Shown in pieces: positions 11,464 through 28,246 of a stretch of 43,095 bases of DNA (position 1 is its first letter; each line of letters opens with the position of its first letter). Position numbers and translations under genes: made by a program. This DNA comes from an uncultured Clostridia bacterium (GTDB taxonomy: Bacteria; Bacillota; Clostridia; Oscillospirales; Ruminococcaceae): positions 1-43,095 of the forward strand of contig CANQYD010000014.1 in NCBI GenBank assembly GCA_947627985.1, given 5' to 3'. Below the pieces are notes generated by a model, which was given only the letters and a program-made list of their open reading frames with translations, did no database searches and had not been told where the DNA came from.

Positions 11464-11497
11464 TTTTGTATCCTCCTTAAGGGATAATAGTGAGATT

Positions 11498-11526
11498 AGT
11501 ATAGCACAGTGGGAGGAAAAAGTCAA
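11498..11526 (-). promoter_or_regulatory. trpS promoter
   Basis: On the minus strand TTGACT (11526-11521) and TATACT (11503-11498) are separated by 17 bases. Transcription should start near 11491, 28 bases before the ATG. Confidence 0.85.
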
Positions 11527-11563
11527 CTTTTAAGATGAGGAGGGTGTGGGGAGATGAGAATCT

Positions 11564-11594
11564 GGCTTCTACCTTCTATCTTCTATCCTCTAAA
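11564..11594. repeat. Seven-base repeat array H2
   Basis: Four units in exact seven-base register (CTTCTAC, CTTCTAT, CTTCTAT, CCTCTAA). It lies just left of composite element A. Confidence 0.75.
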
Positions 11595-11615
11595 GTGCAG
11601 CCGGAGGGTGCACGG

Positions 11616-11701
11616 GGGGCGAAGCCCCGGCGCCGAAGGCGCCGCTGCCACGGCGAAGCCGTGGCAGGGACCGCGCGCTCGCGCGCGGTCGGGCTTCGCC
11701 C
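11616..11701. repeat. Composite hairpin element A
   Basis: Left cap GGGGC-GAA-GCCCC (11616-11628) and right cap GGGC-TTC-GCCC (11691-11701) are reverse complements of each other and each also folds on itself. Between them are three perfect hairpins: CGGCGCC around GAA (11628-11644), CTGCCACGGC around GAA (11645-11667) and GACCGCGCGC with a two-base centre (11669-11690). The right flank reads CTGCTCCTATCAAGGC. Together with element B it fills the 614-base gap 11504-12117, which holds no credible gene. Confidence 0.85.
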
Positions 11702-11844
11702 GTACCCCCTGCTCCTATCAAGGCTGTGTGGTATGTGCAAGCCCGGCGGCAGGGTCGGGTGCCTCTTACGGGGTAAAAGCAGGAGCAGGGAGGCGGGGAC
11801 GGGGTTGGGTGCCACTGACGAGGCTTGATAGGAGCTGAGACCCC

Positions 11845-11926
11845 GGGGCGAAGCCCCGCTGCCGCAAGCGGCAGCGCGCCGACGCGAAGCGTCGGCGGTG
11901 CGCCTACGGCGCACGGGCTTCGCCCC
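11845..11926. repeat. Composite hairpin element B
   Basis: Left cap GGGGC-GAA-GCCCC (11845-11857) and right cap GGGC-TTC-GCCC (11915-11925). Internal hairpins: GCTGCCGC/GCGGCAGC (11858-11875), CGCCGACGC around GAA (11877-11897) and GTGCGCC around TAC (11898-11914). The left flank AGGCTTGATAGGAGCT (from 11821) is the near reverse complement of element A's right flank. Confidence 0.85.
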
Positions 11927-12031
11927 TGCCTCCTGCTCCTATCAGGGTCGTATAGCTGTAGAAGGCTTGGAGCAGAGTTTGCCACTTCCTCCAACCCCCT
12001 GAAAGAAGCAGAGAGTGAAAGATAAGAATCT

Positions 12032-12061
12032 ACCTTCTATCTTCTACCCTCTATCCTCTAA
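12032..12061. repeat. Seven-base repeat array H3
   Basis: CTTCTAT, CTTCTAC, CCTCTAT, CCTCTAA in exact register, to the right of element B. It mirrors array H2 on the other side of the A-B pair. Confidence 0.75.
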
Positions 12062-12117
12062 AGTGCCCTTCTAACTTCCCCACCCCCGCATATAAATATA
12101 GTACAAACTGTAAGGAG

Positions 12118-13815
12118 TTGACCACCATCAAAAAACAAGGGATCATCAAAAGCTCAGCCGTGCTCATGGTCTCGGTCGCGGTCGGGAAAGCGGCGGGGCT
12201 TATATTCAAAATCTTTTTGGCAAACATCTTGGGCGGGACCGGCATGGGCTATTTTTCCGGCGCATATGCCGTCTTCACGCCTCTTTACGCACTCTGCGCC
12301 GGCAGTCTCACGCCCGCTGTCGCCCAGCTCGTCTCGGAAAACGAAGCCCGCAGGAGCCCGTCGCGGGTGCGCGGCGTCAGGACGGCAGCGCTCCGCATTT
12401 TCGCTCTCCCGGGGCTTTTAATGTCGGTCTTGCCGATGGTTTTCGCGGGGATTCTCACCGAGCGGTTTATCGGCAGTCCGGGCGCAAAATATGCCGTAAT
12501 CGCGATCCTTCCGTGCGTGTTTTTGGGAACGGTGACGGCGATCCTGCGCGGCTATTTCGAGGGGCTTCGGAACATGACGCCTACCGCTCTTTCCCAGATC
12601 ACGGAATCGGTCGTGCGGGTGACGGCGGGTCTCGGGCTGTCGGCATATGTAAAAAACGCGGCGCTTTTGGAATATTCGGAATCCGGAACCGTATTCGGTC
12701 ACGCCTGTCCATCTTTGGCATATTTTGACGGGCTGTCTCTTCCGTATATAGCTGCTGCCGCGGTCTTCGGGGTGACGCTTTCCGAGGTGTCGTCGTTTTT
12801 GTTCATGATCGTCCGTACGCGGCTCGGCTCCGACGGGATCGATAAATCCTTAAAGCCCCGTGAATTTGAGATCAGAGGAGAATCAAAAAGGCTGCTGCGG
12901 CTGATAATACCGATCTCGGCGGCGGGAATCGTCGGCTCTTTAGCCGGAACGGTGGATCTTTACACCATCATCTCCGGGATAAAAAGCTCGCTTGCAAGGC
13001 ACCCCGAACTCTACATCGAAAAATACGCCGGCGCGCTCTCAAGCGGGGTGGCGCTTAAAGAGCTTCCCAACTACCTCTACGGCTCCTTCACCGGGCTTGC
13101 GGGGACGGTGTTCGGGCTGGCTCCGTCGCTCTGTTCGGTATTCGGAAAGAGCGCTCTCCCGGCGATTTCCGAGGCATGGTCCGGTAAAGACCTTCCGCGG
13201 GTCTCTCGGGAGATAAGACGGGTTCTGACCGTCAATTTATTCATCTCTGTCCCCGCCGGGCTCGGGCTTTCGGTTCTGTCAAGGGACATATTGGGACTGC
13301 TCTTTTCCTCGCGCGTACACGAGGTCGATATATGCGCCCTCCCGCTCTCGGTGATGGCTCTCGGAACCGCATTCGTGACGGCGGGAGGCGCATGCTTTCC
13401 CATGCTTCAAGCCGTCGGCAGACCCGATCTGCCGATAATCATCACGATAATCGGAGCCGTCACAAGGCTCGGCTTAAACATAATATTGGTCCCGATACCT
13501 TCACTTGGTCTTGTGGGCGCCGCGTTGGCTTCGCTCATAAGCGGCGGGGTGATCTTTATGATCTCGATGATCTTCCTTCTCAAGATCACTCACACCAAAC
13601 TCAAACCCTTTATCATGATAGGTCTGCCGCTTTTATCTTCGGGATTAGCCTGCGCGGGGGCAATATATATCTTAAAAACCTCTAAAAACTACCTTCCCAT
13701 GTCGTTTGCGGTGCTTTTTTCTGTCGGATTTGCCGTCATCTCGTACATATTTTTCCTTCTTTTGTTGGACATTTCTACTAAAAATCGATTTAAAGCAGAA
13801 ATCTTCGGAAAATAG
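12118..13815 (+). CDS. SpoVB/YabM-like polysaccharide (lipid-linked) flippase
   Basis: The product is about 565 residues of almost continuous membrane helices (about 14), with the N-terminus KKQGIIKSSAVLMVSVAVGKAAGLIFKI typical of the MOP/MATE-superfamily SpoVB-YabM-MurJ group. These move lipid-linked sugars across the membrane, and SpoVB-type members serve spore cortex formation. HU and RqcP genes downstream recall the Bacillus yabM-yabN-rqcP neighbourhood. The start is odd. The only usual codon is TTG at 12118, but the Shine-Dalgarno AAGGAG touches it with zero spacing. An ATC at 12127 has ideal spacing. The next ATG (codon 17) lacks a ribosome site. A specific name is not claimed. Confidence 0.8.
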   Translation: MTTIKKQGIIKSSAVLMVSVAVGKAAGLIFKIFLANILGGTGMGYFSGAYAVFTPLYALCAGSLTPAVAQLVSENEARRSPSRVRGVRTAALRIFALPGLLMSVLPMVFAGILTERFIGSPGAKYAVIAILPCVFLGTVTAILRGYFEGLRNMTPTALSQITESVVRVTAGLGLSAYVKNAALLEYSESGTVFGHACPSLAYFDGLSLPYIAAAAVFGVTLSEVSSFLFMIVRTRLGSDGIDKSLKPREFEIRGESKRLLRLIIPISAAGIVGSLAGTVDLYTIISGIKSSLARHPELYIEKYAGALSSGVALKELPNYLYGSFTGLAGTVFGLAPSLCSVFGKSALPAISEAWSGKDLPRVSREIRRVLTVNLFISVPAGLGLSVLSRDILGLLFSSRVHEVDICALPLSVMALGTAFVTAGGACFPMLQAVGRPDLPIIITIIGAVTRLGLNIILVPIPSLGLVGAALASLISGGVIFMISMIFLLKITHTKLKPFIMIGLPLLSSGLACAGAIYILKTSKNYLPMSFAVLFSVGFAVISYIFFLLLLDISTKNRFKAEIFGK

Positions 13816-13856
13816 GCTTGATTTTTGGGAAGAATTCGTATAAAATGTATATTGTC

Positions 13857-13884
13857 TTGAGCCGAAAAGGGTTCAGAGTATACT
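13857..13884 (+). promoter_or_regulatory. Probable hup promoter
   Basis: TTGAGC (13857-13862) and TATACT (13879-13884) with a 16-base spacer, 25 bases before the HU start. A second candidate (TTGATT at 13818 with TAAAAT at 13841) lies upstream, so HU may have two promoters. Confidence 0.55.
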
Positions 13885-13909
13885 ACGCAACATACAGGAG
13901 GAAACAAAA

Positions 13910-14185
13910 ATGACTAAGGTCGAATTAGTTAACAAGATTGCCGTCAAGGCTGATTGCTCCAAGAAGGACGCCGAAAAGGCTCTCAACGCGGTCGTTGACA
14001 GCATCACCGAAGCTCTTACCGAAGGCGAGAAGATCACCCTTGTCGGTTTTGGAACTTTCGAGGTCAAGGAGCGTAAAGCCAAGGAGGGTGTCAATCCTTC
14101 CACCAAGGCTAAGATCATGATCCCGGCAAGAAAGGTACCTTCCTTCAAAGCCGGCAAGGCTCTTAAGGACATCGTTGCGAAATAA
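13910..14185 (+). CDS. hup: DNA-binding protein HU
   Basis: The 91-residue protein is a full-length HU/IHF-family histone-like protein. It shows MTKVELVNKIA, the helical dimer core, GFGTFEVKERKA, the beta-arm region with VNPSTKAKIMIPA containing the DNA-kinking Pro, and the FKAGKALKD tail. It bends and compacts the chromosome as a dimer. It starts at ATG 13910 behind AGGAGGAAACAAAA, a strong ribosome site fitting an abundant protein. It follows the flippase and precedes rqcP, as in many clostridia, with its own promoter and a terminator after it. Confidence 0.97.
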   Translation: MTKVELVNKIAVKADCSKKDAEKALNAVVDSITEALTEGEKITLVGFGTFEVKERKAKEGVNPSTKAKIMIPARKVPSFKAGKALKDIVAK

Positions 14186-14199
14186 GCTTTTCAGCTTTG

Positions 14200-14233
14200 A
14201 CCGATCGGTATCTGCCGGTCGGTTATTTTTTTT
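14200..14233 (+). terminator. Terminator between hup and rqcP
   Basis: ACCGATCGG and CCGGTCGGT pair (one G-T) around a six-base loop, followed by TATTTTTTTT. It ends 16 bases before the rqcP start, so rqcP probably depends on read-through of the abundant HU transcript. Confidence 0.8.
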
Positions 14234-14249
14234 GAAGGCAGGTGATAAA

Positions 14250-14507
14250 ATGCGTCTGGATAAGTATTTAAAGGTCTCGCGGCTCATTAAGCGCAGGACC
14301 GTGGCAAATGAAGCCTGCGACGCGGGAAGAATCTTCGTAAACGGCAAGCAGGCAAGGGCTTCATACGACGTTAAGGTCGGAGACATCATCGAGATAAAAC
14401 TCGGTCAGACCCCTCTGTCAGCCAAGGTCACGGGGGTCTCGGAAGTCGTGAGAAAGGAAAACGCTCAGGAGCTCTACGAGATCATAAGCGGTCGTGAGAT
14501 CGAATAA
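14250..14507 (+). CDS. rqcP: S4-domain RNA-binding protein RqcP (YabO/Hsp15-like)
   Basis: The 85-residue protein is one S4 RNA-binding domain: MRLDKYLKVSRLIKRRTVANEACDAGRIFVNGKQAR, then VKVGDIIEIKLG. In Bacillus this protein joins RqcH on stalled 50S subunits and supports alanine tailing in ribosome quality control. ATG 14250 follows GGCAGGTGATAAA and gives the family start; an upstream frame to 14175 runs through the terminator. HU upstream supports the YabO assignment. YabP, YabQ and DivIC, which often follow, are absent; the next gene lies on the opposite strand. Confidence 0.9.
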   Translation: MRLDKYLKVSRLIKRRTVANEACDAGRIFVNGKQARASYDVKVGDIIEIKLGQTPLSAKVTGVSEVVRKENAQELYEIISGREIE

Positions 14508-14541
14508 AAAACAGCCGGAGAAGCTTTGCGCTCACTCCGGC
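14506..14541 (-). terminator. Terminator of the deacetylase gene
   Basis: On the minus strand GCCGGAG and CTCCGGC pair around a 14-base interior that contains a small AGC/GCT stem, followed by TGTTTTTTATT. The T-run overlaps the rqcP stop codon, so the two converging genes share this space. Confidence 0.75.
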
Positions 14542-14560
14542 GTTATCTATATAAAGGCAT

Positions 14561-15544
14561 TCAGAACTCCGTCGAGAAGCTGTAGCCCCGGGCTTTCATC
14601 TCATCGATAAAATCGCCTAAAATCTCGGCGTTCGTCTTTGAGACGGAGTGCAAAAGATACACTGCACCCGGGTGGGCTCTTGCGATCAGCTTGTCCAAAG
14701 AAGATTTCGGGTCGGGCTGGTTTTCGGTATCCCAGTCCGCATAGGCAAAGCTCCAGAGGACGGTTTTATATCCGAGATCACCCGTGACCGCAAGACTCTG
14801 CTCCGAATATTCCCCCTTAGGAGGTCTGAAGAGCGTCATCTCGCAGCCGAAATCCCGAAGAACTTCACGGTGAAGCTCCATGATCTCATCGCGGCACTCA
14901 TCGACCGAAAGAGAGGGCATGGAGTAGTGGTGGACCGAGTGGGAGCCGACGGTGTGACCCTCGTCGATCATTCTCTTTACGAGCTCCGGCTCGCGTCTGA
15001 CATAATCCCCGACGACAAAAAACGTCGCCTTGACGCCTTTTTCCTTTAATGTATCGAGAATTTTAGAGGTGTAGCCGTTCTCATATCCCTGATCAAAGGT
15101 AAGATTTATGGTCAGATCATCGGTCTCGCGAATAGCTATGGCGTTATATTCCGAATATCCGTTATTAAATTCGACCGCGTCGGCGGGACGGTTTCGTTCG
15201 TCAAACCTGACTCCCTGACCGTAGCCGTGACAGGCGGTATCAAGAGCCGAATAATCCCGACCGAGCGCCGCTTTATCGTCCTTCAAAGTCGCAAGCGGAT
15301 CGACCAAGGCGTCGATATCGGTCGTCGCGTACGGGTCGGGAATGGGGTCGGGAACCGTCTCGGGAAGCGTTTCGGGATATATTCCGGGCGCCTCCGAGGG
15401 CTTTATGCGGCTTTCCTCCCGAGAAATTTCGGGCGCAGAGGGCTCGGTGATCGAGCCGTCAGCCTTTCGCGACGAGCAGCCTGCCAAGATGGCGGCGGCA
15501 AAAACGGCGGTGAATACGGTAAATTTTTTCAGTATTGGGTTCAT
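14561..15544 (-). CDS. PdaA-like polysaccharide deacetylase lipoprotein
   Basis: The 327-residue protein has a signal peptide with lipobox (LAGC, Cys23), a Pro/Glu-rich linker to about 75, and a NodB deacetylase domain (about 130-325). Motif 1 is TFDQGYENGY (Asp151), the variant form seen in PdaA-type delta-lactam-forming enzymes rather than the usual TFDDG. Motif 2 is SHSVHHYSMP (metal ligands likely His202 and His206), and RPPKGEYS is motif 3. It should remove acetyl groups from peptidoglycan MurNAc on the cell or spore surface. The start at 15544 follows GGGAGATTGTA. PdaA itself makes cortex muramic-delta-lactam. Whether this lipid-anchored form has the same timing is not shown. Confidence 0.85.
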   Translation of the reverse strand: MNPILKKFTVFTAVFAAAILAGCSSRKADGSITEPSAPEISREESRIKPSEAPGIYPETLPETVPDPIPDPYATTDIDALVDPLATLKDDKAALGRDYSALDTACHGYGQGVRFDERNRPADAVEFNNGYSEYNAIAIRETDDLTINLTFDQGYENGYTSKILDTLKEKGVKATFFVVGDYVRREPELVKRMIDEGHTVGSHSVHHYSMPSLSVDECRDEIMELHREVLRDFGCEMTLFRPPKGEYSEQSLAVTGDLGYKTVLWSFAYADWDTENQPDPKSSLDKLIARAHPGAVYLLHSVSKTNAEILGDFIDEMKARGYSFSTEF

Positions 15545-15770
15545 TACAATCTCCCGGTTTCGGAGCCGGAAAAGGCGGATTTATGGGATTTTCCGGCATT
15601 TCTCCTGAATTTTTGCGGCAGTCCGCAAGAATAATATGCGCAGGTTGGGGGCGGGTTATGGGTGGGAAATGATGGGATGATTTTTTATTGGGAGATTTAG
15701 GAATTTTTTAGGGGTGGGTGGGTGCGAATGGCGAGCCTTAGTAGGAGCTGGGGGTGAAAGATCGGAATCT

Positions 15771-15800
15771 GACTTCTGCACTCTGATTTCAGACTTCTGC
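15771..15800. repeat. Seven-base repeat array H4
   Basis: ACTTCTG, CACTCTG, ATTTCAG, ACTTCTG in exact seven-base register, to the left of element C. The surrounding gap 15545-16336 (792 bases) holds only elements C and D and arrays H4-H6. Confidence 0.65.
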
Positions 15801-15818
15801 GTAGCCGGAGGGCACGCA

Positions 15819-15904
15819 GGGCGAAGCCCGACCGCGCGCGAGCGCGGTCGCTTCCTCCGCGAAGCGGAGGAAGCCGGCACCTTCGGTGCCGGGGGCTTCG
15901 CCCC
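15819..15904. repeat. Composite hairpin element C
   Basis: Caps GGGC-GAA-GCCC (15819-15829) and GGGGC-TTC-GCCCC (15892-15904). Internal hairpins: GACCGCGC/GCGCGGTC (15830-15849), GCTTCCTCCGC around GAA (15850-15874) and CGGCACC around TTC (15875-15891). The left flank GCGAGCCTTAGTAGGAGCTG (from 15731) is shared with element D. Confidence 0.85.
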
Positions 15905-16010
15905 GAGCCTTCTGCTCCTACCGGGGTTGGTAGGGTACAGAAGGCTGGGTACGGGGGTTGGGTGCTGCTGACGAGCCTTAGCAGGAGCTGGAGGTAAAAG
16001 ATCGGAATCC

Positions 16011-16040
16011 TCCTTCTGCACTCCGGCTTAAGGCTTCTGC
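16011..16040. repeat. Seven-base repeat array H5
   Basis: CCTTCTG, CACTCCG, GCTTAAG, GCTTCTG in seven-base register, between elements C and D. It is the diverged counterpart of H4, 240 bases away. Confidence 0.6.
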
Positions 16041-16058
16041 GGGAACAGGGGGAGCAGA

Positions 16059-16135
16059 GGGCGAAGCCCCGCTGCCGCAGGCAGCGCGCCGACGCGGAGC
16101 GTCGGCGGTGCGACTTCGTCGCACGGGCTTCGCCC
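16059..16135. repeat. Composite hairpin element D
   Basis: Caps GGGC-GAA-GCCC (16059-16069) and GGGC-TTC-GCCC (16125-16135). Internal hairpins: GCTGCC around GCA (16071-16085), CGCCGACGC around GGA (16087-16107) and GTGCGAC around TTC (16108-16124). The module order equals element B, though it lies 4 kb away, whereas its near-tandem neighbour C carries other modules. Confidence 0.85.
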
Positions 16136-16242
16136 GTACCCCTTGCTCCTACCACAAGCCGGTAGGTCGCAGAAAGTTGGGAGCAAAGGTCGGCTAACCC
16201 CTACCGACCCCTATCAGAAGCAGCAGGTAAAATATCAAAATC

Positions 16243-16272
16243 TGTCCTCTGACCTCTAACTTCTGTCCTCTG
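16243..16272. repeat. Seven-base repeat array H6
   Basis: TCCTCTG, ACCTCTA, ACTTCTG, TCCTCTG in exact register. It ends about 30 bases before a TATAAT box (16302-16307) that may serve the downstream sigma gene; no -35 box is evident there. Confidence 0.7.
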
Positions 16273-16336
16273 TTCCGACCCCTTTCCCCCGCCCCGCACG
16301 TTATAATGTATGACCCCACAGAAAGGAGGCACCCGC

Positions 16337-16864
16337 ATGACCCAATCGTCACCCGACCCCCGCAGCCGCGTAGAGGAACTATTTTCCAAATATAAAAACC
16401 TCATGTTCACGGTCGCTAATTCCGTCCTCGGGAACCCGTTCGACGCCGAGGACGCGGTCTTTGAAGCGTTCGCGAGGATCATCAAAAACATCGCGAAAAT
16501 ACCCGCCGAACCCACTAAGGAACGGGCTTTCGCGGTCATCGTCGTCAAAAATATCGCAATCGACATGCTGCGAAAAAAGAGCCGGACCGAGGTCAGCCTG
16601 CCCGAGGATTTCGACCCCGCCGCCGGAAATTTCGCCGACGAAATCCTCGAAAAACTCGACGAATCGGTGCTCCGGGACGCGCTCGCGAGGCTCCCGGACG
16701 CGCACTACGAGGTGCTGCTGTTAAAATTTTACTACGGTTTCGGGGTCGGCGAGATCGGCTCGGCGCTCGGGCTCGGGCGGGAAGCGGTCAAGAGCCGGAT
16801 CAGGCGCGCCAAGGCAAATCTCAGGAAAATTTTGGAGGAAATGGGCTATGAACAATCTTTTTAA
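16337..16864 (+). CDS. ECF-type RNA polymerase sigma factor (second)
   Basis: The 175-residue protein has region 2 (EELFSKYKNLMFTVANSVLGNPFDAEDAVFEAFARI then AFAVIVVKNIAIDMLRKK) and region 4 (LPDAHYEVLLLKFYYGFGVGEIGSALGL then REAVKSRIRRAKANLRKIL). ATG 16337 stands behind AAAGGAGGCACCCGC. The 3' end overlaps the next gene by 17 bases, so the pair is coupled. Its layout repeats that of the minus-strand pair at 747-2257, but the proteins differ clearly in sequence, so it is a parallel system rather than a recent duplicate. Confidence 0.85.
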   Translation: MTQSSPDPRSRVEELFSKYKNLMFTVANSVLGNPFDAEDAVFEAFARIIKNIAKIPAEPTKERAFAVIVVKNIAIDMLRKKSRTEVSLPEDFDPAAGNFADEILEKLDESVLRDALARLPDAHYEVLLLKFYYGFGVGEIGSALGLGREAVKSRIRRAKANLRKILEEMGYEQSF

Positions 16865-18002
16865 GGCTTTTGAGGACACTTTGGGCGACAGATTTTCCGC
16901 GGAAATCGCAGTCTCCGAGCACGATTTTTCACCCGAATTTGAGGAAAAAATGAGCAGTCTTATCGCAAAAATCCCGTCCGAAAACGGCATAAAAACCTCG
17001 CGTTCGGTCGGGATAATGTTAAGATATTTAATTATTGCTGCTGTCGTCGCCATGCTGACCGTTTCAGCCGTTGCGGTCGGTCCGAAAATAGTTAAGCAGT
17101 TTACAAGATGGCTGGATAATTCCCACTATTTTTCATATTCTAAAGATTCCGACGGCAACGTCACCAAGCGCTCCGGGATAATCATGAAGACCCCGGAAAA
17201 CGCCGAAAATGCGGCTTCCGCAGGGTTTATCTTCAACATTCGGACCTACGGTCAACGCGACGGCGAGGCATGTCATCTTGAGACCTTCGACGACCCGATC
17301 CGGCTCACTTTCGGAGGCGGCAGACCCGGTGAAAACTTCATTCTGAAGCTGTTTTTGGACTGCGAAGAGACCGATTTTACGGTCGATGGCGTGACCTCCG
17401 ACCGCTATATCCTGACCCCCGGCGGCGGCTTGACCGAGACCGAGCTAAGGCTTGCCACCGACCTTTCGATGGACCGCGAGCACAGCCTCATCGCTGTCAT
17501 CATGAGCGATGAAAATGTGGAAAATTCCGGAAAAACTCGGGGCGTTGCTTATCGAGTTCGGCTCACGAATGACAGCTGCAAGCCCGAAATTCAGCAGCTG
17601 CCAGATGATCCCGAAAAATATCTTGACTGTAAATATCAGGGAATTGTTGTCGGAAAACAGTTCAATGTTGAGGAAAATATTGTCAGAATCCCGCCGAAGA
17701 AGATCAAAGTAAGCCCCGGCGAGACAGTTAAACTCAGCCTTCGCACCGGCTGCTATCCCGAGGAAATCGACGGCGTCGCCGTTATCTTAATGCTGAACAA
17801 TGAGCCCGTAAACATCGGCGGCAAGGACTTTTTGCACATCTCAAACGACCCCGGCAGGCTCTCTTATGACACTGTCGAGCTCACCGCTCCGACCGAGCCG
17901 GGAAGCTATCGGCTCAGCTGCCTTGCGGTCCCCGACCCCTTCGGAAACGCCGGCACCGGCACCTGCGATTTCGGATTTGAGATCGCGCTGACAGTTGAGT
18001 AG
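16848..18002 (+). CDS. Membrane anti-sigma-like protein paired with the second sigma factor
   Basis: The 384-residue protein has a cytosolic N-terminus of about 55 residues (MNNLFKAFEDTLGDRFSAEIA), one membrane helix (about 56-80, YLIIAAVVAMLTVSAVAVG) and an outer domain of about 300 residues of beta-rich character. No zinc-binding HxxxCxxC is seen. GGAGG nine bases before ATG 16848 lies inside the sigma gene. By position and topology it should restrain the sigma factor and release it on an envelope signal. The outer domain matches nothing I recognise. It converges on the ClpC-like gene with only nine bases between the stops. Confidence 0.6.
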   Translation: MNNLFKAFEDTLGDRFSAEIAVSEHDFSPEFEEKMSSLIAKIPSENGIKTSRSVGIMLRYLIIAAVVAMLTVSAVAVGPKIVKQFTRWLDNSHYFSYSKDSDGNVTKRSGIIMKTPENAENAASAGFIFNIRTYGQRDGEACHLETFDDPIRLTFGGGRPGENFILKLFLDCEETDFTVDGVTSDRYILTPGGGLTETELRLATDLSMDREHSLIAVIMSDENVENSGKTRGVAYRVRLTNDSCKPEIQQLPDDPEKYLDCKYQGIVVGKQFNVEENIVRIPPKKIKVSPGETVKLSLRTGCYPEEIDGVAVILMLNNEPVNIGGKDFLHISNDPGRLSYDTVELTAPTEPGSYRLSCLAVPDPFGNAGTGTCDFGFEIALTVE

Positions 18003-18011
18003 ATTAACGGT

Positions 18012-20339: not shown

Positions 20340-20535
20340 TGGTCTGTCCTCCCATGAATAATAAAAATCGGTATCAAAAGTATCGCCGGAAAATCCGCGC
20401 GATAATCATCATCGCTAAATTCTATGCAAAAAGTCGGCTTGCCTACGATAGCGGCAGTAACACATTTTCAGCCGAGACATAAACTGTAGTATGAAGTTCA
20501 GACTTCAGAAATTATACATGAAGGAGCAAACTATT

Positions 20536-20709
20536 ATGAATTGTTTCGGTAACGGTTACTGGTGGATCATCATTCTCATCCTGATCATCCTCTTCGGCTT
20601 CAACGGCAACGGCTGCTGCAACTCCTGCGGCAACAATTGCGGCTGCGGCAACAACTGCGGCAACAACTGCGGCAACGGCTGCGGAAACGACTGCGGCTGC
20701 GGCTGCTGA
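20536..20709 (+). CDS. Cys/Gly/Asn-rich membrane-anchored miniprotein
   Basis: The 57-residue protein has one hydrophobic helix (about 8-24, YWWIIILILIILFGF) and a tail made almost wholly of Asn, Cys and Gly in repeats of N-N-C-G and C-G-C-G, with 13 cysteines. The tail could bind metal or form disulfides outside the membrane; neither is shown. Small Gly/Cys-rich one-helix proteins of this build resemble YjcZ-type sporulation miniproteins of Firmicutes, so a spore-coat or late-sporulation role is possible. ATG 20536 follows AAGGAGCAAACTATT. It has its own strong terminator, so it is a monocistronic real gene despite its low complexity. Confidence 0.7.
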   Translation: MNCFGNGYWWIIILILIILFGFNGNGCCNSCGNNCGCGNNCGNNCGNGCGNDCGCGC

Positions 20710-20719
20710 TCCCGAAAAT

Positions 20720-20760
20720 CCCCGCCTTCCTAAGTTTCGGAGGGCGGGGGGTATTTTTAT
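20720..20760 (+). terminator. Terminator of the Cys-rich miniprotein gene
   Basis: CCCCGCCTTCC and GGAGGGCGGGG pair (one G-T) around an eight-base loop, followed by GGTATTTTTATTT. Confidence 0.9.
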
Positions 20761-20843
20761 TTATAAAGGGTTTTCGGGAGATTTTTTCCGCATAATCCCA
20801 CCCGAATCTGCTAATACTATCCAAAAAAGTCTCGGAGGGTTTT

Positions 20844-23800
20844 ATGCATAAATTCGGAAAAAACGGGAAAATAAGCCTCTACAGTCTTGCCTCGGAATCC
20901 GCAAAAAAGTTAAGAAAGCTAAAAAAAATCTACTCCTTTTACCTCCAGAACGGCACCGAAAACGCGGCTGAGGCATACTTTGCCGACAACTTTCACTCGG
21001 TCCTTCGGGGCTGCTTCAAAAAGCCGTCGCGGGATCTTAAGCGCAGGTTTATAAGCCACCGCGGGCTCGATCTCGCGGGCGATATAATCGAGCGCTCGGG
21101 GGAGGAATTTCCGGGAAGCGACGGGATTATAAAGATCATTCGCGACCGCGCTTCGCGGGAAAAAATCTTTGCCCCGGACGTTGAATATCTCGCCGAGACG
21201 CTGAGGTATAAACTGATATGCGGGATTTTTGAGATGATCACACGCTCCGACCCCGGGGTGATTCGGCTGATGTCGCTTCTTTCCGACATCGGAAGCGTCG
21301 ATCTCGGTCGGATAAACGAGGTCGTAAACCCCGTTGCCATAAGGCTTTCAGGCGATCCCGCATACCGAAGAAGCGACATAAAGACCAAGTCGTCATACCG
21401 GGAGGCGATATATCTTCATGCCCGAAAAAATCACGTCGATGAGTGCGAACTGTGCGACGGACTTCTTGAAAAATCCCGCGGGGGATTTTTGGACCTGCGC
21501 GCCCTCGGGATCATGAAAAACAAATATTTACAGCCGAAGCACGCCGTCTTTGCCGTGATTTTTCTGATGATCTTTTCAGCCCTCCTCTCGGTTCTGATTT
21601 CGGGATATGCCGGCTGCCCGTGGCTTTTTATAATGCTGATCCTGCCCGCCGTCGAAGCCTTAAGACCCCTTTCCGACCGCATTTTGCGGCACAACATAAG
21701 CTGCGAACGGCTTATGCGGCTCAAGCAGGACGATCCCGAACTTGAAAAAGAGCGGGTTGCGATCGTTTTGTCGGCGCAGATCACCGATCCCGAGGGCGCA
21801 GAGGAAATTTATGACAAGCTCCTGCGGCTTCACTGCTTAAACCCGGGTGAGAACATCATGATCTGCGCTCTGCTTGATCTTGCAGCCGAGCAGGTGCCGA
21901 TAACGTCGGAGGATCGCGCGGTCTTTGAAAGCCTGCGGGAAGCGGTCATGAAACTTGAAAACAAGGTGCCGGGGAAATTTTCGGTGATAGTGAGAAAACG
22001 GAGCTTCTCGGAGACGCAGCAGGAATACATGGGAAAATGCCGAAAAAGAGGCGCTTTGGCGGAGCTTTGCGAATTTTTGAAAACCGGCTCGGAGGATTTT
22101 TATCTTAAACTCGGGCGGGTGAATGATCTTATCGGCTGCGACTACTTCTGCGCGGTCGATTCGGACACGCTTCCGCTGATGGATTCGGTCAGGGAACTCT
22201 TGGCGGCGGCGCTTCATCCCATGAACAAAATAAAAACCGAGGGCGGGAAGATCACCCACGGGTACGGCGTCATCGCGCCGAGAATGATCACCCGGCTCGA
22301 GGACAGTCTTAGGACGGAGTTTTCAAAAAGCGTCGGGGGGATCGGCTCACGTTCGAGCTACGACGGCGAAGCCGCAAACCTCTGGCAGGACGTCTTCGGA
22401 AGGGGTACCTTCTGCGGCAAAGGACTTATCAACGTCACGGCGCTGCATGAATGCTCAAAAATGCTGACGGGAGAGAGGATTTTATCCCACGATATCTTAG
22501 AGGGCGAGCTTTTGCGGACCGCCTACGCCTCCGACATCTTGTTCACCGAGGGCTTTCCGAAGTCGCCGCAGAGCTATTACAGGCGGCTCGATCGGTGGAT
22601 AAGAGGCGATTTTCAGAATATCCCGGAGATTTTTTCCAAAAGATTCGACTGCATATCAAAGCTTAAACTGCTTGACAATCTAAGGCGCGCGCTTACTCCG
22701 GTATCGGTATTTTCCTGCTTTTTCCCGGGATTTTTCCTTGAGCCTCCTTTGGGCTCGGTAATCGCATTTTCGGCGGTTTTGATGTGGATAAGCCCGTCAT
22801 TATGGGGTGCTCTTCGGGCTTTATTCTGCGACGGGGGCTTCGGGAGGTCCTACTATTCGGGACTTCTGAGCACGGCTTCGCAGTCGCTTCGATATATTTT
22901 ATACAGCGTGATTATGCTGCCGACTCTGGCAATAAAGTCCCTAAGAGCCGCCGTCACCGCGGTTTTGCGGCTTATGAGCGGTCGGAATCTTCTTGAATGG
23001 ACGACGGCTGACGCTCAGGACAAATCCGGGGTGCTCCCCCTGCGGTATTACCTTGTCCCCGAGGTTTTAAGCCTGTCGCTTCTTTGGCAAAGCGATTATC
23101 CGATACGCCTTGCGGGGGCTGTTTTTTCGATGATGCCGGCGCTTTTATGCATCGACCTGCTGCCTGCAAAAAAGGAGACTGCGGGGCTGAGGTACCGCGA
23201 TTCAAGGGAACTTTCAAAGCAGACGGCAGACATGTGGAGCTTCTTTGAAAACAGCGTTACGGCGGACGATAATTATCTTCCGCCCGACAACGTGCAGTTT
23301 TCGCCGGTGTATCGGGTCGCGCACCGAACGTCTCCCACAAACATCGGACTATATATGCTGAGCTGCCTTGCGGCATACGACCGAAAACTGATTAACCTAA
23401 GACAGCTTCATGATCGGCTTTTAAGGACTCTTGAGACCGTCGAGCGGCTCGAAAAATACAAGGGAAATCTGTATAACTGGTACGACACCGAGACTCTTAA
23501 GATCATCGGACCGGAGTTTGTTTCGAGCGTTGACAGCGGCAACTTCACGGTCTGCATGGTCGCCTTAAAAGAGGGGCTTTATGATCTCGGCGGCGAGATG
23601 AAAGAAATCGCCGGCAGAATCGAAAAGATCATAAACGCAACCGATCTTGCGGCATTTTATGATGGAATACGTGGGCTGATGGCGATAGGAATCGAAAAAA
23701 GCGGAAATCTCACAAAAAACCGCTACGATTTTCTGATGAGCGAGGCAAGGCTTCTCTCATACTGGGCGATCGCCTCCCGTCAGGTCCCGAAAAGCCACTG

Positions 23801-26800
23801 GCAAAGGCTTTCGCGGGCTATGCTGTCATCGGGATTTTTCGGCGGCGCCGCGTCATATTCGGGCACGATGTTTGAATTCTTCATGCCGGAGATTTTCTTA
23901 AAATGTCCCGAGGGGTCTTTATCGAGCGAAAGCCTTAAATATGCGCTCTGGGTGCAGAGAAAATACGCGTCAAAAATGTCCCGACCTTACGGAATCTCGG
24001 AAAGCGGCTGCTACAGCTTCGACCCGGCTTTAAACTACCGGTATTCAGCCCACGGAGTGCCTGCGACGGGCATAAGACGGGGGCTGGAGAAGAGCTATGT
24101 AATATCTCCCTATTCGACATATATTTCCTATTCATATGCCCCGAGGGAAGCCGCGGAAAACCTCCGGGAGCTTTGTGATCTCAATATGTACGGCGCATAC
24201 GGGCTCTATGAGGCACTTGATTACACCTCGCCGTCATCGGGCGGTCCCGAGCCGGTCAGAAGCTATATGGCGCACCACGTCGGCATGTCGATACTCTCGG
24301 CGGACAACGTACTTTCCGGCGGGATCATGCAAAAAAGATTCATGAAGGATCTGAGATCGATGGGCGCCGCAGAGCTTTTGGACGAGCGGTTCCACCTCGG
24401 CACGGCGGTGTTTGAAAACATTTTAAGACGACCGCCGGAGAATACCCCGGAAAAGACCGACTTTGACAGTGAGATCATCGATCGCCCCGACCCCTTTGAT
24501 CAGAAGATGAGGATTTTTTCAAACGGCGACAGCACGCTTTTGATGTCCTCCTGCGGGTGCTCGAAATTCATCTACCGCTCCAAAAACGTCTACGATTTCA
24601 AGCCGAAGCCCTTCACAAGACCCGGCGGGTTTATCTGCCTCGCGGGCGAGGACGGCGATATCCAACCTTTCACGGTAAACCTCGAAAACGGCGGCGTTTC
24701 GGCTGAGCTGTGCGAGGACAGCGTGAAGCTCTATATGAACACGCAAAACCTGCGTATGGGACTGATGACGTCGCTTCATGAGACCCTTCCCTGCGAGATA
24801 AGGCGGTTTGCGTTCAAAAATGAGACGGGCAGGACGGTGCCGGTGAATGCCGCGATATATATCGAGCCGTCGCTTCTTGAAGATAAAGATGAGCGCACCC
24901 ACCCGGCATATTCAAAGATGTTTTTAAGACTTGATCGCGACCCGGCTCTTGACGTCGTGACGGTGACGAGGGTCAGGGAGGACAAGAAAATCTATGCCGC
25001 GTTCGGGTTTGTCGAGGACTTAAAGCTGACGGTGAGTTTTGATCGGGGCGAGGTGTTAAAATATCCCTTCGGCGCCGACGGGTTGAAGGACAGCGTCAAT
25101 GAGATCCGCCCGAGCCTTATCTGCGAGCCCGATCCCTGCGTATATATCGGGTGCAGGATCGATCTGCCGGCTAAATCTTCTACGGAACTGACGGCGTTTA
25201 CGGTTTGCGCGCAGTCTAAAGAGGAGCTGATAAACCGGGTCAATATCCTAAGAAGAAAGAGGGCTTCTGCGTGCCGTCTTCCGAGGGCTGACACTGCTGC
25301 CGGAAGGGTCGCGGGAATGCTGCTGCCGAAGATTTTATACGGCGGCTCCGGGGTAAAAAACATCTCCCCTGCCCTGCTTCCATTGAATTCACTTTTTGAG
25401 ATTTCGGCTGCTACGGATATCCCGACCGTGGCTATAGAACTTAACGGCAGAAACGATCGGGCGAAGCTGTCGGCGTATCTTGGGGCGTATCATCTTATAA
25501 GAAGATGCGGATTGAAGATGCAGCTGATCGCCATCTACGACGACGGCGGGAGATACGAGCGGGAGCACTATAACGACCTCGTGAGAGCCGCCGAGGAGGC
25601 GGGCTGCGAAGGGTTCATCTACTCGCCCGGGGGTATCCTGCCGCTCGACATCTCAAAGACAAGACCGGGGCTCGATGAACTGGCAAGGGCTTTTTCGAGG
25701 CAGGTCTGCGAAAGCGACATCACAGAAAGCCCTGTGAAAAAGCCGGAGAGAAAATTCATTAAGATAGAAAGGTCGGAGCCGGGTCATTTTGATATCGATA
25801 AAGAGGTGGCTTGCGGGGGATTTTCGGGGTGCGATTACGTCATCAATGATACCCCTCCCCTGCCTTGGTGTCATGTGCTCTCAAATCCCGTCTTCGGGAC
25901 GCTTCTGTCCTCCTGCTCGCTGGGGTTTTCCTATGCGTTCAACTCCCGGGAGTGCCGCTTAACCCCGTGGTCAAACGACCCGATGAGGGATAACTCCGGG
26001 GAAAGACTGCTGCTTTTATCGGGCGGGAAATTTTATGATCTTATCGACGGCTCGGCTGCTAAATTCGGGTTCGGGTTTGCGGAATATTCATCACAGGGAG
26101 AAAATTATCGGGCAAAGATCAGGGTGACGGTGTCAAGTAAAGGAATGTGCAAAAAGATTTCGGTGGATATAAATGCTCCCGCGGGCTCGTCGGTGATTTA
26201 TTACACCGAGCCCTGTCTTTCGCCCGATAGGTTCGGCTCGGGAATGCTTATCCCCAAAATGCTTGAAAACGGGCTTTTGATACATGCCCCGAGCTCCGAG
26301 ACGGGCGCTTTTATGGGGGTGATGTGTTCCGAAAAAGCCGTCTGCGAGACAGATCGGGAAAAGATTTTTTCGGGGGATTTCTCGGGCGAAGTTTCACCGC
26401 ACGAAGGTCTCGCCGCCGCCGTTAAACGTGAGATATCGGGTGATGAAAAAATTGACTTTTTCCTTACCTGCGCGCTCTCCGAAAATGCCGCGATAAATAT
26501 GCCGAAATATTTTACCGAGCAGGAGTTTAATGATCTTCCGGATAAAAATACCCCCGAAAATCGGAGGATTTTGGCTAAGTGGCTTTACTATCAGGCTCTG
26601 CATGGAAGATTTTATGCTAAAACCGGGTTTTATCAGTGCTCGGGCGCGTTCGGGTTCCGGGATCAGCTTCAGGACGCGTGCTGCTTAGCTAAGCATAAGC
26701 CCGAGGTGCTTAAGTCGCAGATTTTAAGATGCTGCATGGCGCAGTTTGCCGAGGGAGACGTGATGCACTGGGTGCACAGTCTTCCGAACAAAAAGCGAAG

Positions 26801-27788
26801 AGGGGTCAGGACGCATATCTCGGACGACCCGCTTTGGCTGGCGTATGCGGTATGCGAATATATCAAGGCGACGGGCGATGAGGATATTTTGGATATTTCT
26901 GTCGCATATTCCGGCGGGCTCGATATCCCGGGAGAATTTAAGCAGAACTACGGCGAAGTCTACCGCACGGCGATGAGGGAGAATGTGTATCGCCACTGCA
27001 AAAGGGCGATAGATTGCCTTGCCGGGAAAACCGGAAAGCATGGGCTTATGCTCATAGGCTCCGGCGACTGGAACGACGGGTTTGACAAAGTGGGCATGGG
27101 CGGAGGCGAATCGGTCTGGCTGAGCGAATTTTATATCATGGTCCTTGAAAGGTTCTCGCTGATTTCGATGAGCCGCGGGGAGAGAGAATATGCCGAAAAT
27201 CTAAGAAAATACGCGGAACAGCTCAGGGAAAGCGTCTCAAAAAACGGCAGGGACAAGGACCACTGGCTCAGAGGATTTTACGGAAACGGCGAGCCGCTCG
27301 GTTCGCAAAAGTCCGAATGCTGCCGGATAGACTCGATCGCGCAGTCATTTGCCGTATTTGCGGGGTTGGATAGGGACTTCACCCGTGAAGCGCTGCTGAA
27401 AGCCTATCGCGAGCTTTATGACAAAAAGCGGGGAACCGTCAGGCTCTTTGCGCCGGCATTTAACGACATGAGCGAGCCCGACCCGGGGTATATCAAATAC
27501 TACCCCGAGGGGCTTAGGGAGAACGGCGGGCAGTATACTCATGCCGCCGTCTGGCTGGCGATCGCGATGAAAAAAGCGGGACTTGACGAGGAGGCGGAGG
27601 AGATTATCGACGCGCTGAGCCCTGTGGCGCATTCCGAAAACGGCGGGCACCAAAGGTATAAGACCGAGCCTTACTACCTCTGCGGGGACGTTTACACGAA
27701 CAAGAACTGCATGGGAAGAGGCGGGTGGTCGATCTATACCGGCGCCGCGGGGTGGCTGCTGAGGGGGATCGAGGGGGAGGGGGTGTAG
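20844..27788 (+). CDS. Giant GT84-GH94 protein (cyclic beta-glucan synthase-like)
   Basis: The 2314-residue protein has the order seen in cyclic beta-1,2-glucan synthases (NdvB/Cgs). Its parts are an N-terminal region, two membrane helices (about 232-275), a GT84-like glycosyltransferase with CAVDSDTLPLMDS (about 432-445), more membrane helices (about 625-780), and a glycoamylase-like domain (about 800-1180, with SGGPEPVRSYMAHHVGMS). A GH94-type phosphorylase domain forms the C-terminal half, with FGFRDQLQDA, in which the Asp near 1940 is the general acid, then GSGDWNDGFD. In Brucella/Agrobacterium the enzyme builds and length-controls cyclic glucan from UDP-glucose. A Gram-positive product is not established. 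ATG 20844 follows CGGAGGGTTTT. Codon use resembles its neighbours. Confidence 0.8.
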   Translation: MHKFGKNGKISLYSLASESAKKLRKLKKIYSFYLQNGTENAAEAYFADNFHSVLRGCFKKPSRDLKRRFISHRGLDLAGDIIERSGEEFPGSDGIIKIIRDRASREKIFAPDVEYLAETLRYKLICGIFEMITRSDPGVIRLMSLLSDIGSVDLGRINEVVNPVAIRLSGDPAYRRSDIKTKSSYREAIYLHARKNHVDECELCDGLLEKSRGGFLDLRALGIMKNKYLQPKHAVFAVIFLMIFSALLSVLISGYAGCPWLFIMLILPAVEALRPLSDRILRHNISCERLMRLKQDDPELEKERVAIVLSAQITDPEGAEEIYDKLLRLHCLNPGENIMICALLDLAAEQVPITSEDRAVFESLREAVMKLENKVPGKFSVIVRKRSFSETQQEYMGKCRKRGALAELCEFLKTGSEDFYLKLGRVNDLIGCDYFCAVDSDTLPLMDSVRELLAAALHPMNKIKTEGGKITHGYGVIAPRMITRLEDSLRTEFSKSVGGIGSRSSYDGEAANLWQDVFGRGTFCGKGLINVTALHECSKMLTGERILSHDILEGELLRTAYASDILFTEGFPKSPQSYYRRLDRWIRGDFQNIPEIFSKRFDCISKLKLLDNLRRALTPVSVFSCFFPGFFLEPPLGSVIAFSAVLMWISPSLWGALRALFCDGGFGRSYYSGLLSTASQSLRYILYSVIMLPTLAIKSLRAAVTAVLRLMSGRNLLEWTTADAQDKSGVLPLRYYLVPEVLSLSLLWQSDYPIRLAGAVFSMMPALLCIDLLPAKKETAGLRYRDSRELSKQTADMWSFFENSVTADDNYLPPDNVQFSPVYRVAHRTSPTNIGLYMLSCLAAYDRKLINLRQLHDRLLRTLETVERLEKYKGNLYNWYDTETLKIIGPEFVSSVDSGNFTVCMVALKEGLYDLGGEMKEIAGRIEKIINATDLAAFYDGIRGLMAIGIEKSGNLTKNRYDFLMSEARLLSYWAIASRQVPKSHWQRLSRAMLSSGFFGGAASYSGTMFEFFMPEIFLKCPEGSLSSESLKYALWVQRKYASKMSRPYGISESGCYSFDPALNYRYSAHGVPATGIRRGLEKSYVISPYSTYISYSYAPREAAENLRELCDLNMYGAYGLYEALDYTSPSSGGPEPVRSYMAHHVGMSILSADNVLSGGIMQKRFMKDLRSMGAAELLDERFHLGTAVFENILRRPPENTPEKTDFDSEIIDRPDPFDQKMRIFSNGDSTLLMSSCGCSKFIYRSKNVYDFKPKPFTRPGGFICLAGEDGDIQPFTVNLENGGVSAELCEDSVKLYMNTQNLRMGLMTSLHETLPCEIRRFAFKNETGRTVPVNAAIYIEPSLLEDKDERTHPAYSKMFLRLDRDPALDVVTVTRVREDKKIYAAFGFVEDLKLTVSFDRGEVLKYPFGADGLKDSVNEIRPSLICEPDPCVYIGCRIDLPAKSSTELTAFTVCAQSKEELINRVNILRRKRASACRLPRADTAAGRVAGMLLPKILYGGSGVKNISPALLPLNSLFEISAATDIPTVAIELNGRNDRAKLSAYLGAYHLIRRCGLKMQLIAIYDDGGRYEREHYNDLVRAAEEAGCEGFIYSPGGILPLDISKTRPGLDELARAFSRQVCESDITESPVKKPERKFIKIERSEPGHFDIDKEVACGGFSGCDYVINDTPPLPWCHVLSNPVFGTLLSSCSLGFSYAFNSRECRLTPWSNDPMRDNSGERLLLLSGGKFYDLIDGSAAKFGFGFAEYSSQGENYRAKIRVTVSSKGMCKKISVDINAPAGSSVIYYTEPCLSPDRFGSGMLIPKMLENGLLIHAPSSETGAFMGVMCSEKAVCETDREKIFSGDFSGEVSPHEGLAAAVKREISGDEKIDFFLTCALSENAAINMPKYFTEQEFNDLPDKNTPENRRILAKWLYYQALHGRFYAKTGFYQCSGAFGFRDQLQDACCLAKHKPEVLKSQILRCCMAQFAEGDVMHWVHSLPNKKRRGVRTHISDDPLWLAYAVCEYIKATGDEDILDISVAYSGGLDIPGEFKQNYGEVYRTAMRENVYRHCKRAIDCLAGKTGKHGLMLIGSGDWNDGFDKVGMGGGESVWLSEFYIMVLERFSLISMSRGEREYAENLRKYAEQLRESVSKNGRDKDHWLRGFYGNGEPLGSQKSECCRIDSIAQSFAVFAGLDRDFTREALLKAYRELYDKKRGTVRLFAPAFNDMSEPDPGYIKYYPEGLRENGGQYTHAAVWLAIAMKKAGLDEEAEEIIDALSPVAHSENGGHQRYKTEPYYLCGDVYTNKNCMGRGGWSIYTGAAGWLLRGIEGEGV

Positions 27789-27942
27789 GGACGTGTTTTT
27801 ACTGAATTAAAAGAAAGCGCGGCTTTTTGCCTTGCTTTGATCGGCGGGGTGCTCCCATGCGAAGTGTTGCTTCTCTTTTGGAAAGTTCATGCACATTGAT
27901 TATGAGACTGTTTTCCTCGCCCGCCGCGCCCTTTGCAAAAGG

Positions 27943-28083
27943 TATTCCCCCAATTTCGCAGAGGCAAAATCGGGGGAATGCTGTTTTAAGTCCCCACCCC
28001 GACTTGCGACAAAAACTCTCAGAGCACAAGTAATCCCACGCTTTTGATTGCGAAGTGCGATGAGATAGTTTTTGCGCAAGTCG
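27943..28083. repeat. Intergenic inverted repeats 3' of the giant gene
   Basis: ATTCCCCCAATTT near 27943 and AAATCGGGGGAAT near 27969 form one hairpin with a single mismatch. CGACTTGCGACAAAAACT (27999-28016) and AGTTTTTGCGCAAGTCG (28067-28083) form a second, larger one with a one-base bulge and partly complementary interior. No gene is credible in 27789-28390. The stretch could be a small RNA or a decayed mobile element. Confidence 0.5.
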
Positions 28084-28159
28084 TCCCTCCCCGAGGAGGA
28101 GGCGGGGCTTGATGAAGGTCTTGCGCATATCACACAGCCTTGGCAGGAGCAGAAGGTAC

Positions 28160-28246
28160 GGGGCGAAGCCCCCCGGCGCCGAAGGCGCCGGCTTCCTCCG
28201 CTTCGCGGAGGAAGCGACCGCGCTCGCGCGCGGTCGGGCTTCGCCC
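28160..28246. repeat. Composite hairpin element E
   Basis: Caps GGGGC-GAA-GCCCC (28160-28172) and GGGC-TTC-GCCC (28236-28246). Internal hairpins: CCGGCGCC around GAA (28173-28191), GCTTCCTCCGC around TTC (28191-28215) and GACCGCGC/GCGCGGTC (28216-28235). It combines one module found in element A, one found in C and one found in both. The left flank AGCCTTGGCAGGAGC and right flank TCCTTTCCTATCAGGG match the family. Confidence 0.85.

What the first reader, a model, noticed from the sequence alone, without database searches (positions are those of the whole stretch)
11616..28246. A family of modular composite hairpin elements (A-E) with mirror-image caps
Five intergenic elements of about 77-87 bp share one design. 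A hairpin GGGC-GAA-GCCC opens each and its exact reverse complement GGGC-TTC-GCCC closes each, so the caps fold singly or pair with each other. Between them stand three perfect GC-rich hairpins with very short loops (2-4 bases). The internal hairpins come from a shared set: CGGCGCC (A, E), GACCGCGC (A, C, E), GCTTCCTCCGC (C, E), GCTGCC (B, D), CGCCGACGC (B, D), GTGCG(A/C)C (B, D), CTGCCACGGC (A only), CGGCACC (C only). Arms are perfectly matched even where bases differ between copies (GTGCGCC versus GTGCGAC), which implies paired changes that preserve structure. This looks like cassette shuffling in a structured RNA, a REP/BIME-like repeat or a small non-autonomous mobile element. I know no named family with this build.
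Basis: partly seen in the sequence, partly recalled or inferred. Interest (0 to 1): 0.85.

Follow-up and report, generated by a model that had tools for sequence, protein, structure and literature searches.

The report
DNA cloverleaf repeats with flipping loops
This gut bacterium and some relatives carry many copies of an 80-letter DNA repeat that folds into a perfect four-armed cloverleaf whose tiny loops flip over during evolution while the stems stay matched, a pattern that points to copying inside the fold rather than to ordinary RNA selection.

Summary
Elements A-E sit where stated. The genome has 159 exact cap-cap copies, 202 with the 9-mer cap cores. The two 'caps' are best read as the two strands of one closing stem: with the three hairpins they form a cloverleaf, lower in energy than five separate hairpins in 122 of 122 arrays. 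Of 125 unique cap spans in 18 genomes, 122 enclose exactly three hairpins; none of 69 cap-pair stretches in viral contigs does. All 14 genomes of one clade carry arrays; part of a second genus has its own version. In 18 orthologous pairs from that genus 4 of 574 arm pairs, 58 of 158 loop nt and 10.3% of flank nt changed; 8 of 53 loops are exact inversions and 2 arrays are inverted. No sense-strand or wobble preference was seen, no Rfam match and no tracking Y1 transposase. Best reading: a strand-symmetric, REPIN-like DNA repeat shaped by replication template switching, mobiliser unknown. Architecture and pattern are shown; process and role are inferred.

The parts
11617..11701 (.). Element A: cap 11617-11627; hairpins 11628-11644 (CGGCGCC/GAA), 11645-11667 (CTGCCACGGC/GAA), 11669-11690 (GACCGCGCGC/TC); cap 11691-11701. 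Subfamily II.
   Evidence: DNA fold z -7.0
11846..11925 (.). Element B: cap 11846-11856; hairpins 11857-11876, 11877-11897, 11898-11914; cap 11915-11925. Subfamily I.
   Evidence: DNA fold z -7.5
15819..15903 (.). Element C: cap 15819-15829; hairpins 15830-15849, 15850-15874, 15875-15891; cap 15893-15903. Subfamily II, array inverted relative to its flanks when compared with A.
   Evidence: DNA fold z -8.2
16059..16135 (.). Element D: cap 16059-16069; hairpins 16070-16086, 16087-16107, 16108-16124; cap 16125-16135. Subfamily I.
   Evidence: DNA fold z -7.8
28161..28246 (.). Element E: cap 28161-28171; hairpins 28173-28191, 28192-28214, 28216-28235; cap 28236-28246. Subfamily II.
   Evidence: DNA fold z -6.4
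11552..11598 (+). Heptad-like pyrimidine tract (CTTCTAC CTTCTAT ...), flank type P of this genome's repeat islands; similar at 12020-12066, 15759-15805, 16232-16278
11702..11723 (+). Flank type Q (GTACCCCCTGCTCCTATCAAGG), seen inward-facing beside many copies
   Evidence: loose regex classes

Best explanation
A family of intergenic DNA repeats, about 77-105 bp, that fold into a cloverleaf: a closing stem with core GGCGAAGCC/GGCTTCGCC in that order, and three near-perfect hairpins with mostly three-base loops, C(GNA)G or its complement. It is strand-symmetric: both strands give the same fold with the same cap polarity, and arrays can sit inverted in place. Its build resembles REPINs (an inverted pair of short conserved palindromes around a spacer that must fold), and like them it multiplies inside genomes, to about 200 copies here. 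Shown: architecture, distribution, recent amplification of subfamily I, loop and array inversions between orthologous sites, arms changing far less than flanks and loops far more. Inferred: (1) arms are kept matched and loops flipped by replication template switching within the extruded or single-stranded fold; (2) the low arm divergence reflects selection on the folded form whichever strand carries it; (3) copies spread in trans by an enzyme not yet identified, probably not a Y1 transposase.
For: Closing stem plus exactly three hairpins in 122 of 125 unique cap spans, 93 of 95 when the loci fetched by the structure model (L143-L170) are left out; none of 69 viral-contig stretches with the same cores. 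Reverse cap order: 0 in G000, 1 non-array in 31 genomes, against 159. Paired change: 443 two-sided cells against 105 shuffled (model-fitted alignment, both strands of each array). 43 of 2026 stem pairs deviate in 231 distinct hairpins, against 44 of 252 in a neighbouring repeat hairpin chosen by pattern. Sense strand of 64 tandem-context arrays: GU 8, AC 6 of 1634 pairs; GNA 77, TNC 85. 18 reciprocal-best orthologous pairs found by caps alone: arm pairs 4/574 changed, loop nt 58/158, flanks 549/5317; 8 of 53 loops exact inversions, 5 inversions with one substitution; 2 of 18 arrays inverted, one with both flanks supporting it. ilvC-ilvD: array identity 0.79-0.93 against 0.23-0.57 upstream and 0.47-0.70 downstream in five species; G000's copy fits better inverted. 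PMC8794818 and PMC8604942 (passages read) name loop/spacer inversion and arm homogenisation as template-switch footprints.
Against: One-sided stem changes are not absent: 6 one-sided against 2 two-sided cells in 46 recent copies, 2 against 2 in orthologues, so stepwise change is possible. Template switching alone should not slow arm change; the low arm divergence needs selection or another cause, and an RNA role could supply it. Low-copy arrays lie mostly between co-directional genes (28 of 41 with both neighbours called), as expected of a transcribed element. The sense-strand test rests on 19 deviating pairs. Cap conservation could not be measured, because arrays were found by their caps. No clean empty site or target duplication was found in the loci read, so transposition is not shown; in G000 array and flank types often go together (loose classes). 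No mobilising gene was identified. Many loops are not GNA/TNC (in g33 54 of 81 distinct hairpins are). A general outer stem failed its control.
Confidence: 0.58

Rival explanations
1. A transcribed RNA element in operon spacers (REP-like 3'-end or processing structure that tunes relative mRNA levels, as between ilvC and ilvD), whose DNA copies multiplied secondarily in some species.
For: Low-copy arrays mostly lie between co-directional genes (28 of 41), many within 150 bp of a neighbouring gene. In ilvC-ilvD the array is far better conserved than the upstream spacer. RNA folds are very stable.
Against: No wobble or loop preference on the sense strand (small numbers); in-place inversion occurs; 21 of 86 classified G000 copies lie in divergent spacers; no Rfam match.
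Confidence: 0.2
2. Functionless palindromes: arms made perfect and loops flipped by template switching, copies spread by segmental duplication of intergenic islands.
For: Loop flips and two-sided changes are the known mutational footprint; G000 copies occur in tandem clusters sharing flanks.
Against: Arm pairs change about fifteen times less than flank nt (4 of 574 pairs against 10.3%; arrays with lost caps would be missed); 14 of 14 clade members keep arrays; cap order is strict; three hairpins nearly always.
Confidence: 0.14
3. A true REPIN/REP family mobilised by a RAYT (Y1 transposase).
For: Inverted pair of short conserved palindromes around a folding spacer, extragenic, high copy, tandem clusters.
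Against: Y1 in 8 of 31 own-genus and 1 of 5 g33 genomes, absent from G010, G003, G005, G022, G020, G992; none of 20 Y1 loci holds an array; GTAG and CGTC 3 and 3 in 244 cap flanks.
Confidence: 0.06

Closest known systems
REPINs (REP doublets forming hairpins; PMC3116915, passages read)
   Same: Unit of similar size; two short conserved palindromes in inverted orientation; spacer constrained to fold, with compensatory changes; extragenic, high copy, tandem clusters.
   Different: Three separate hairpins in the spacer instead of one; caps form a closing stem with a GGCGAAGCC core; no GTAG/CGTC tag; no tracking RAYT; found in Clostridia-related genomes.
GTAG/CGTC-tagged REPs and their dimers (PMC3733652, abstract and section 14 read)
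   Same: Dimers can fold as one large structure; some spacers hold small stem-loops; CGTC REPs also lack a known transposase.
   Different: No tags; three-hairpin spacer; two caps in one fixed order.
Repetitive hairpin-forming elements of sponge mitochondria and the LIMP palindrome of Lobosphaera (PMC2800124, PMC4524435, passages read)
   Same: Stems conserved, loops variable in the sponge elements; the LIMP loop occurs in both orientations; recurrent amplification.
   Different: Organelle; single, tandem or triple hairpins, no closing stem of this kind in the passages read.
Template-switch mutation footprints (PMC8794818, PMC8604942, passages read)
   Same: Loop/spacer inversion, multi-base paired change, arm homogenisation.
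   Different: Described for rRNA and coding inverted repeats, not as a repeat family of this build.

Membership tests
REPIN/RAYT | Inverted pair of conserved short palindromic ends around a folding spacer | tested here: met
REPIN/RAYT | RAYT (Y1) gene present and flanked by the repeat | tested here: not met
   Y1 absent from many array-bearing genomes; none of 20 Y1 loci holds an array
REPIN/RAYT | GTAG or CGTC tag at the foot of the REP | tested here: not met
   3 and 3 in 244 inward 14-nt cap flanks, about 10 expected by chance
MITE | Terminal inverted repeats | tested here: met
   caps
MITE | Target-site duplication / empty site | tested here: inconclusive
   94 joined-flank queries against the G000 loci read by then (not the whole genome), 20 junction-spanning hits, none a clean empty site
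Rfam structured RNA | Match to a curated covariance model | tested here: not met
   window at gathering scores: 0; 8 loci at E<=1: 0
Structured RNA (general) | Wobble pairs tolerated and loop identity kept on the transcribed strand | tested here: inconclusive
   No preference seen, but only 19 deviating pairs in 1634
Template-switch-shaped inverted repeats | Loop inversion with unchanged arms; paired change | tested here: met

The most novel reading that the evidence does not exclude
A self-propagating DNA cloverleaf: a new class of REPIN-like element in Bacillota, recognised as folded single-stranded or cruciform DNA through its GGCGAAGCC ends and C(GNA)G hairpin apices on either strand, moved by a non-Y1 enzyme, and renewed at replication by copying one arm from the other.
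Probability: 0.3. Interest if true: 0.82.

Novelty: new variant of a known kind. Interest (0 to 1): 0.66.

Why it matters
Paired base changes are often taken as strong evidence for RNA structure. Here is a natural family with hundreds of near-perfect hairpins in which paired change coexists with loop inversion, in-place array inversion and strand symmetry, so covariation may arise at the DNA level. The orthologous arrays (arms nearly frozen, loops flipping) make the template-switch account of compensatory change directly measurable. If the element is mobile, it would be a REPIN-like replicator without a RAYT.

Tried and rejected
Rfam: no match. tRNA/tmRNA scan of 12 loci: two ordinary tRNAs only. 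Y1 transposase as driver: does not track. A recurrent transposase among flanking genes: none; 64 of the 77 genes were scanned, 128 Pfam families, of which 7 are in 2 genes and the rest in 1; only 25 names were shown. Loss of SbcCD as the reason arrays are tolerated: opposite trend, SbcD over cut-off in 9 of 15 array genomes and 2 of 16 others (confounded by kinship). A general outer stem beyond the closing stem: not above shuffled partners (37 arrays, 5.51 against 5.36; 76 G000 arrays below chance), although single cases such as L021 have 15 bp. Viral vector: 69 stretches with the cap cores in viral contigs; none a three-hairpin array, one with two weak hairpins. Clean empty site: not found.

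Mended on re-checking: the wobble count (GU 1, mismatch 42) was strand-arbitrary and is replaced. The energies used cut caps; one search repeats them with full caps (again 122 of 122). The orthologue counts reused some arrays and pre-selected perfect hairpins, and their 'no cap changes' was true by construction; one search replaces them with each array once, found by caps only, and the cap claim is withdrawn. In one search arms are those of the G992 copy, so arms already broken there are partly missed.

Dropped rows: 3 of 125 cap spans without three hairpins (L022, L031, L147) before the hairpin counts; 8 of 44 cap spans were unpaired (5 of 23 in G992, 3 of 21 in G313); 17 of 30 ilvD loci were not read at the ilvC-ilvD site because the text pattern missed them. 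In G018 the ilvC end was not found and 90 nt were used as upstream spacer.

Papers: searches showed no description of this element; the library lacks most subscription journals. PMC13155455: passages only. The special stability of GNA DNA triloops is recalled; one search was seen as a listing.
Full report
Observation. The five elements are present as described, with the start corrected by one base. Each is a cap GGGCGAAGCCC, three hairpins with perfect arms and a cap GGGCTTCGCCC. A and B lie between divergent genes (trpS-like 10456-11526 and a SpoVB/MurJ-like gene 12118-13815, below that family's cut-off), C and D between divergent genes (a PdaA-like deacetylase, below cut-off, and an ECF sigma factor), E between convergent genes.

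Scale. The window lies in a 2.16-Mb genome (G000) with 159 exact cap-cap copies and 0 for the reversed control pattern; with the 9-mer cores GGCGAAGCC..GGCTTCGCC there are 202. The opposite cap order occurs 0 times in G000 and once, not as an array, in 31 genomes of the genus. I read 96 distinct exact-cap copies of the 159: 95 decompose into three hairpins and one into two. In subfamily I (CGCTGCC-CGCCGACGC-GTGCGAC) 41 copies share identical arms, so it spread recently. In 46 gapless copies of it, 1050 of 1058 internal pairs equal the reference, with 6 one-sided and 2 two-sided changes. Subfamily II has a variable middle hairpin whose arms mostly vary together.

Fold. The caps are complementary to each other, so the array is a closing stem carrying three hairpins, a cloverleaf. 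That fold is lower in energy than five separate hairpins in 122 of 122 arrays under RNA and DNA parameters, and seven elements folded as DNA gave z of -6.4 to -12.4. A longer outer stem exists in some copies (L021, 15 bp) but is not above chance overall.

Distribution. Exact caps: 13 of 60 genomes including G000, all in its genus. A covariance model built from the arrays finds matches in 15 of 31 genus genomes, 5 of 295 in an order sample and 1 of 398 in a phylum sample, G000 itself. The 9-mer pattern rings in 4 of 297 family genomes, its reversed control in 3, once each. In an IlvD tree of 30 of the 31 genomes all 14 members of one clade carry arrays, plus G026 outside it. In a second genus of the family (g33) the pattern hits 8 of 60 genomes, the reversed control 2, once each; reading the hits, five hold real arrays (G313, G992, G171, G102 and one of two hits in G1000), with closing stem GCGGCGAAGCCGC and arms that can be AT-rich (arm GC 0.1 to 1.0). 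As a control, 69 viral-contig stretches with the same two cores contain no three-hairpin array. The nearest named relatives by the IlvC of G010 are uncultured Oscillospiraceae/Clostridia MAGs (records of the window's own genome may be left out there).

Three hairpins. 122 of 125 unique cap spans in 18 genomes have exactly three. Some of these loci were fetched with the structure model; without L143-L170 the count is 93 of 95 in 13 genomes, although the places fetched were picked from the model's list.

Loops. In 231 distinct hairpins of the first set 186 have triloops, 158 of them GNA or TNC, and 209 close with C-G; in g33 54 of 81 are GNA/TNC, most others AAA/TTT. The hairpin next to the 5' cap tends to show GNA and the one next to the 3' cap TNC, on either strand (outside G000: 30 GNA to 10 TNC at the first hairpin, 12 to 26 at the third). 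Such GNA loops are, from recall, unusually stable in DNA.

Pairing. On a model-fitted alignment of 74 rows (both strands of each array) 99.4% of cells pair and 443 cells differ on both sides, against 105 in shuffles. Over distinct hairpins 43 of 2026 pairs deviate; a neighbouring repeat hairpin in the same islands, picked by a pattern, deviates in 44 of 252. A G-U on one strand is an A-C on the other, so the test needs a known strand: in 64 arrays between co-directional genes the sense strand has 8 GU, 6 AC and 5 other deviations in 1634 pairs, and loops of 77 GNA, 85 TNC and 30 other. This gives no sign of selection on one RNA strand, though the numbers are small.

Orthologous arrays. Of 13 species read between ilvC and ilvD, 7 have an array and 6 do not. 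G010, G016, G018, G020 and G022 share it at 0.79-0.93 identity while the upstream spacer falls to 0.23-0.57 and the downstream one to 0.47-0.70; G000 has it in inverted order (0.74-0.92 inverted, 0.66-0.72 forward) and G015 has an array with other modules. In G028 and G022 the first loop is flipped GAA to TTC with its arms unchanged. In g33, 18 reciprocal-best pairs of G992 and G313 arrays, found by caps alone and each used once, show 25 loops the same, 11 with one substitution, 8 exact inversions, 5 inversions plus one substitution and 4 other. Arm pairs changed at 4 of 574 (2 on one side, 2 on both), loop nt at 58 of 158 and aligned flanks at 549 of 5317 nt. Two of the 18 arrays are inverted in place, one supported by both flanks and one mainly by one flank. 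Caps cannot be scored, because they were used to find the arrays.

Interpretation. Loop inversion with unchanged arms and homogenised arms are published footprints of template switching (PMC8794818, PMC8604942; passages read). That process can keep arms matched without wobble intermediates, but by itself it would not make arms change more slowly than flanks, so I infer selection on the folded form, strand-independent because both strands fold alike and inverted copies occur. 0 of 96 G000 copies lie inside predicted genes (my own simple gene caller). In G000 copies lie in spacers of all orientations (16 convergent, 49 tandem, 21 divergent, 10 open-ended); of 46 arrays in other genomes 28 are tandem, 9 divergent, 4 convergent, 4 open-ended and 1 overlaps a predicted gene, which leaves room for an RNA role.

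Mobility. The plan is that of REPINs (PMC3116915; passages read), but Y1 genes do not track the arrays, none of 20 Y1 loci read holds an array and the GTAG/CGTC tags are not enriched. The amplified unit in G000 often includes flanking repeats, and no clean empty site was found in the loci read. The mover is therefore unknown.

Limits.

Noticed in passing
window 20604-20715: 12-bp tandem repeats (CGGCAACAACTG-like) that could encode a Gly/Asn/Cys-rich peptide, just upstream of the 2314-aa ORF.
   Followed up: no
window 20844-27788: 2314-aa ORF with only a weak NCBIfam match (glucans glucosyltransferase MdoH, below cut-off).
   Followed up: no
G000 contigs C15, C28, C52, C64: Several contigs begin or end at or inside an array, so arrays break the assembly and copy number may be underestimated.
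   Followed up: no
L178 2090; L011 1501: Chimeric arrays: a subfamily II arm joined at the GCTTCGC apex to a subfamily I arm, and a I-I-II hybrid, suggesting exchange at hairpin apices.
   Followed up: partly
L199 1729-1840: Apparent collapsed array: flanks intact with a single cap (GGGGGCTTCGCCC) left.
   Followed up: no
L321 1501 (G1017): Cap pair enclosing one very long, nearly perfect hairpin instead of three.
   Followed up: no
upstream of ilvD in several loci (e.g. G010, G016, G020, G022, G007): A GCCGAGG..CCTCGGC-like hairpin precedes ilvD, apart from the array.
   Followed up: no
genus survey: SbcD passes the cut-off in 9 of 15 array-bearing and 2 of 16 other genomes, the reverse of a tolerance-by-loss expectation.
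   Followed up: partly
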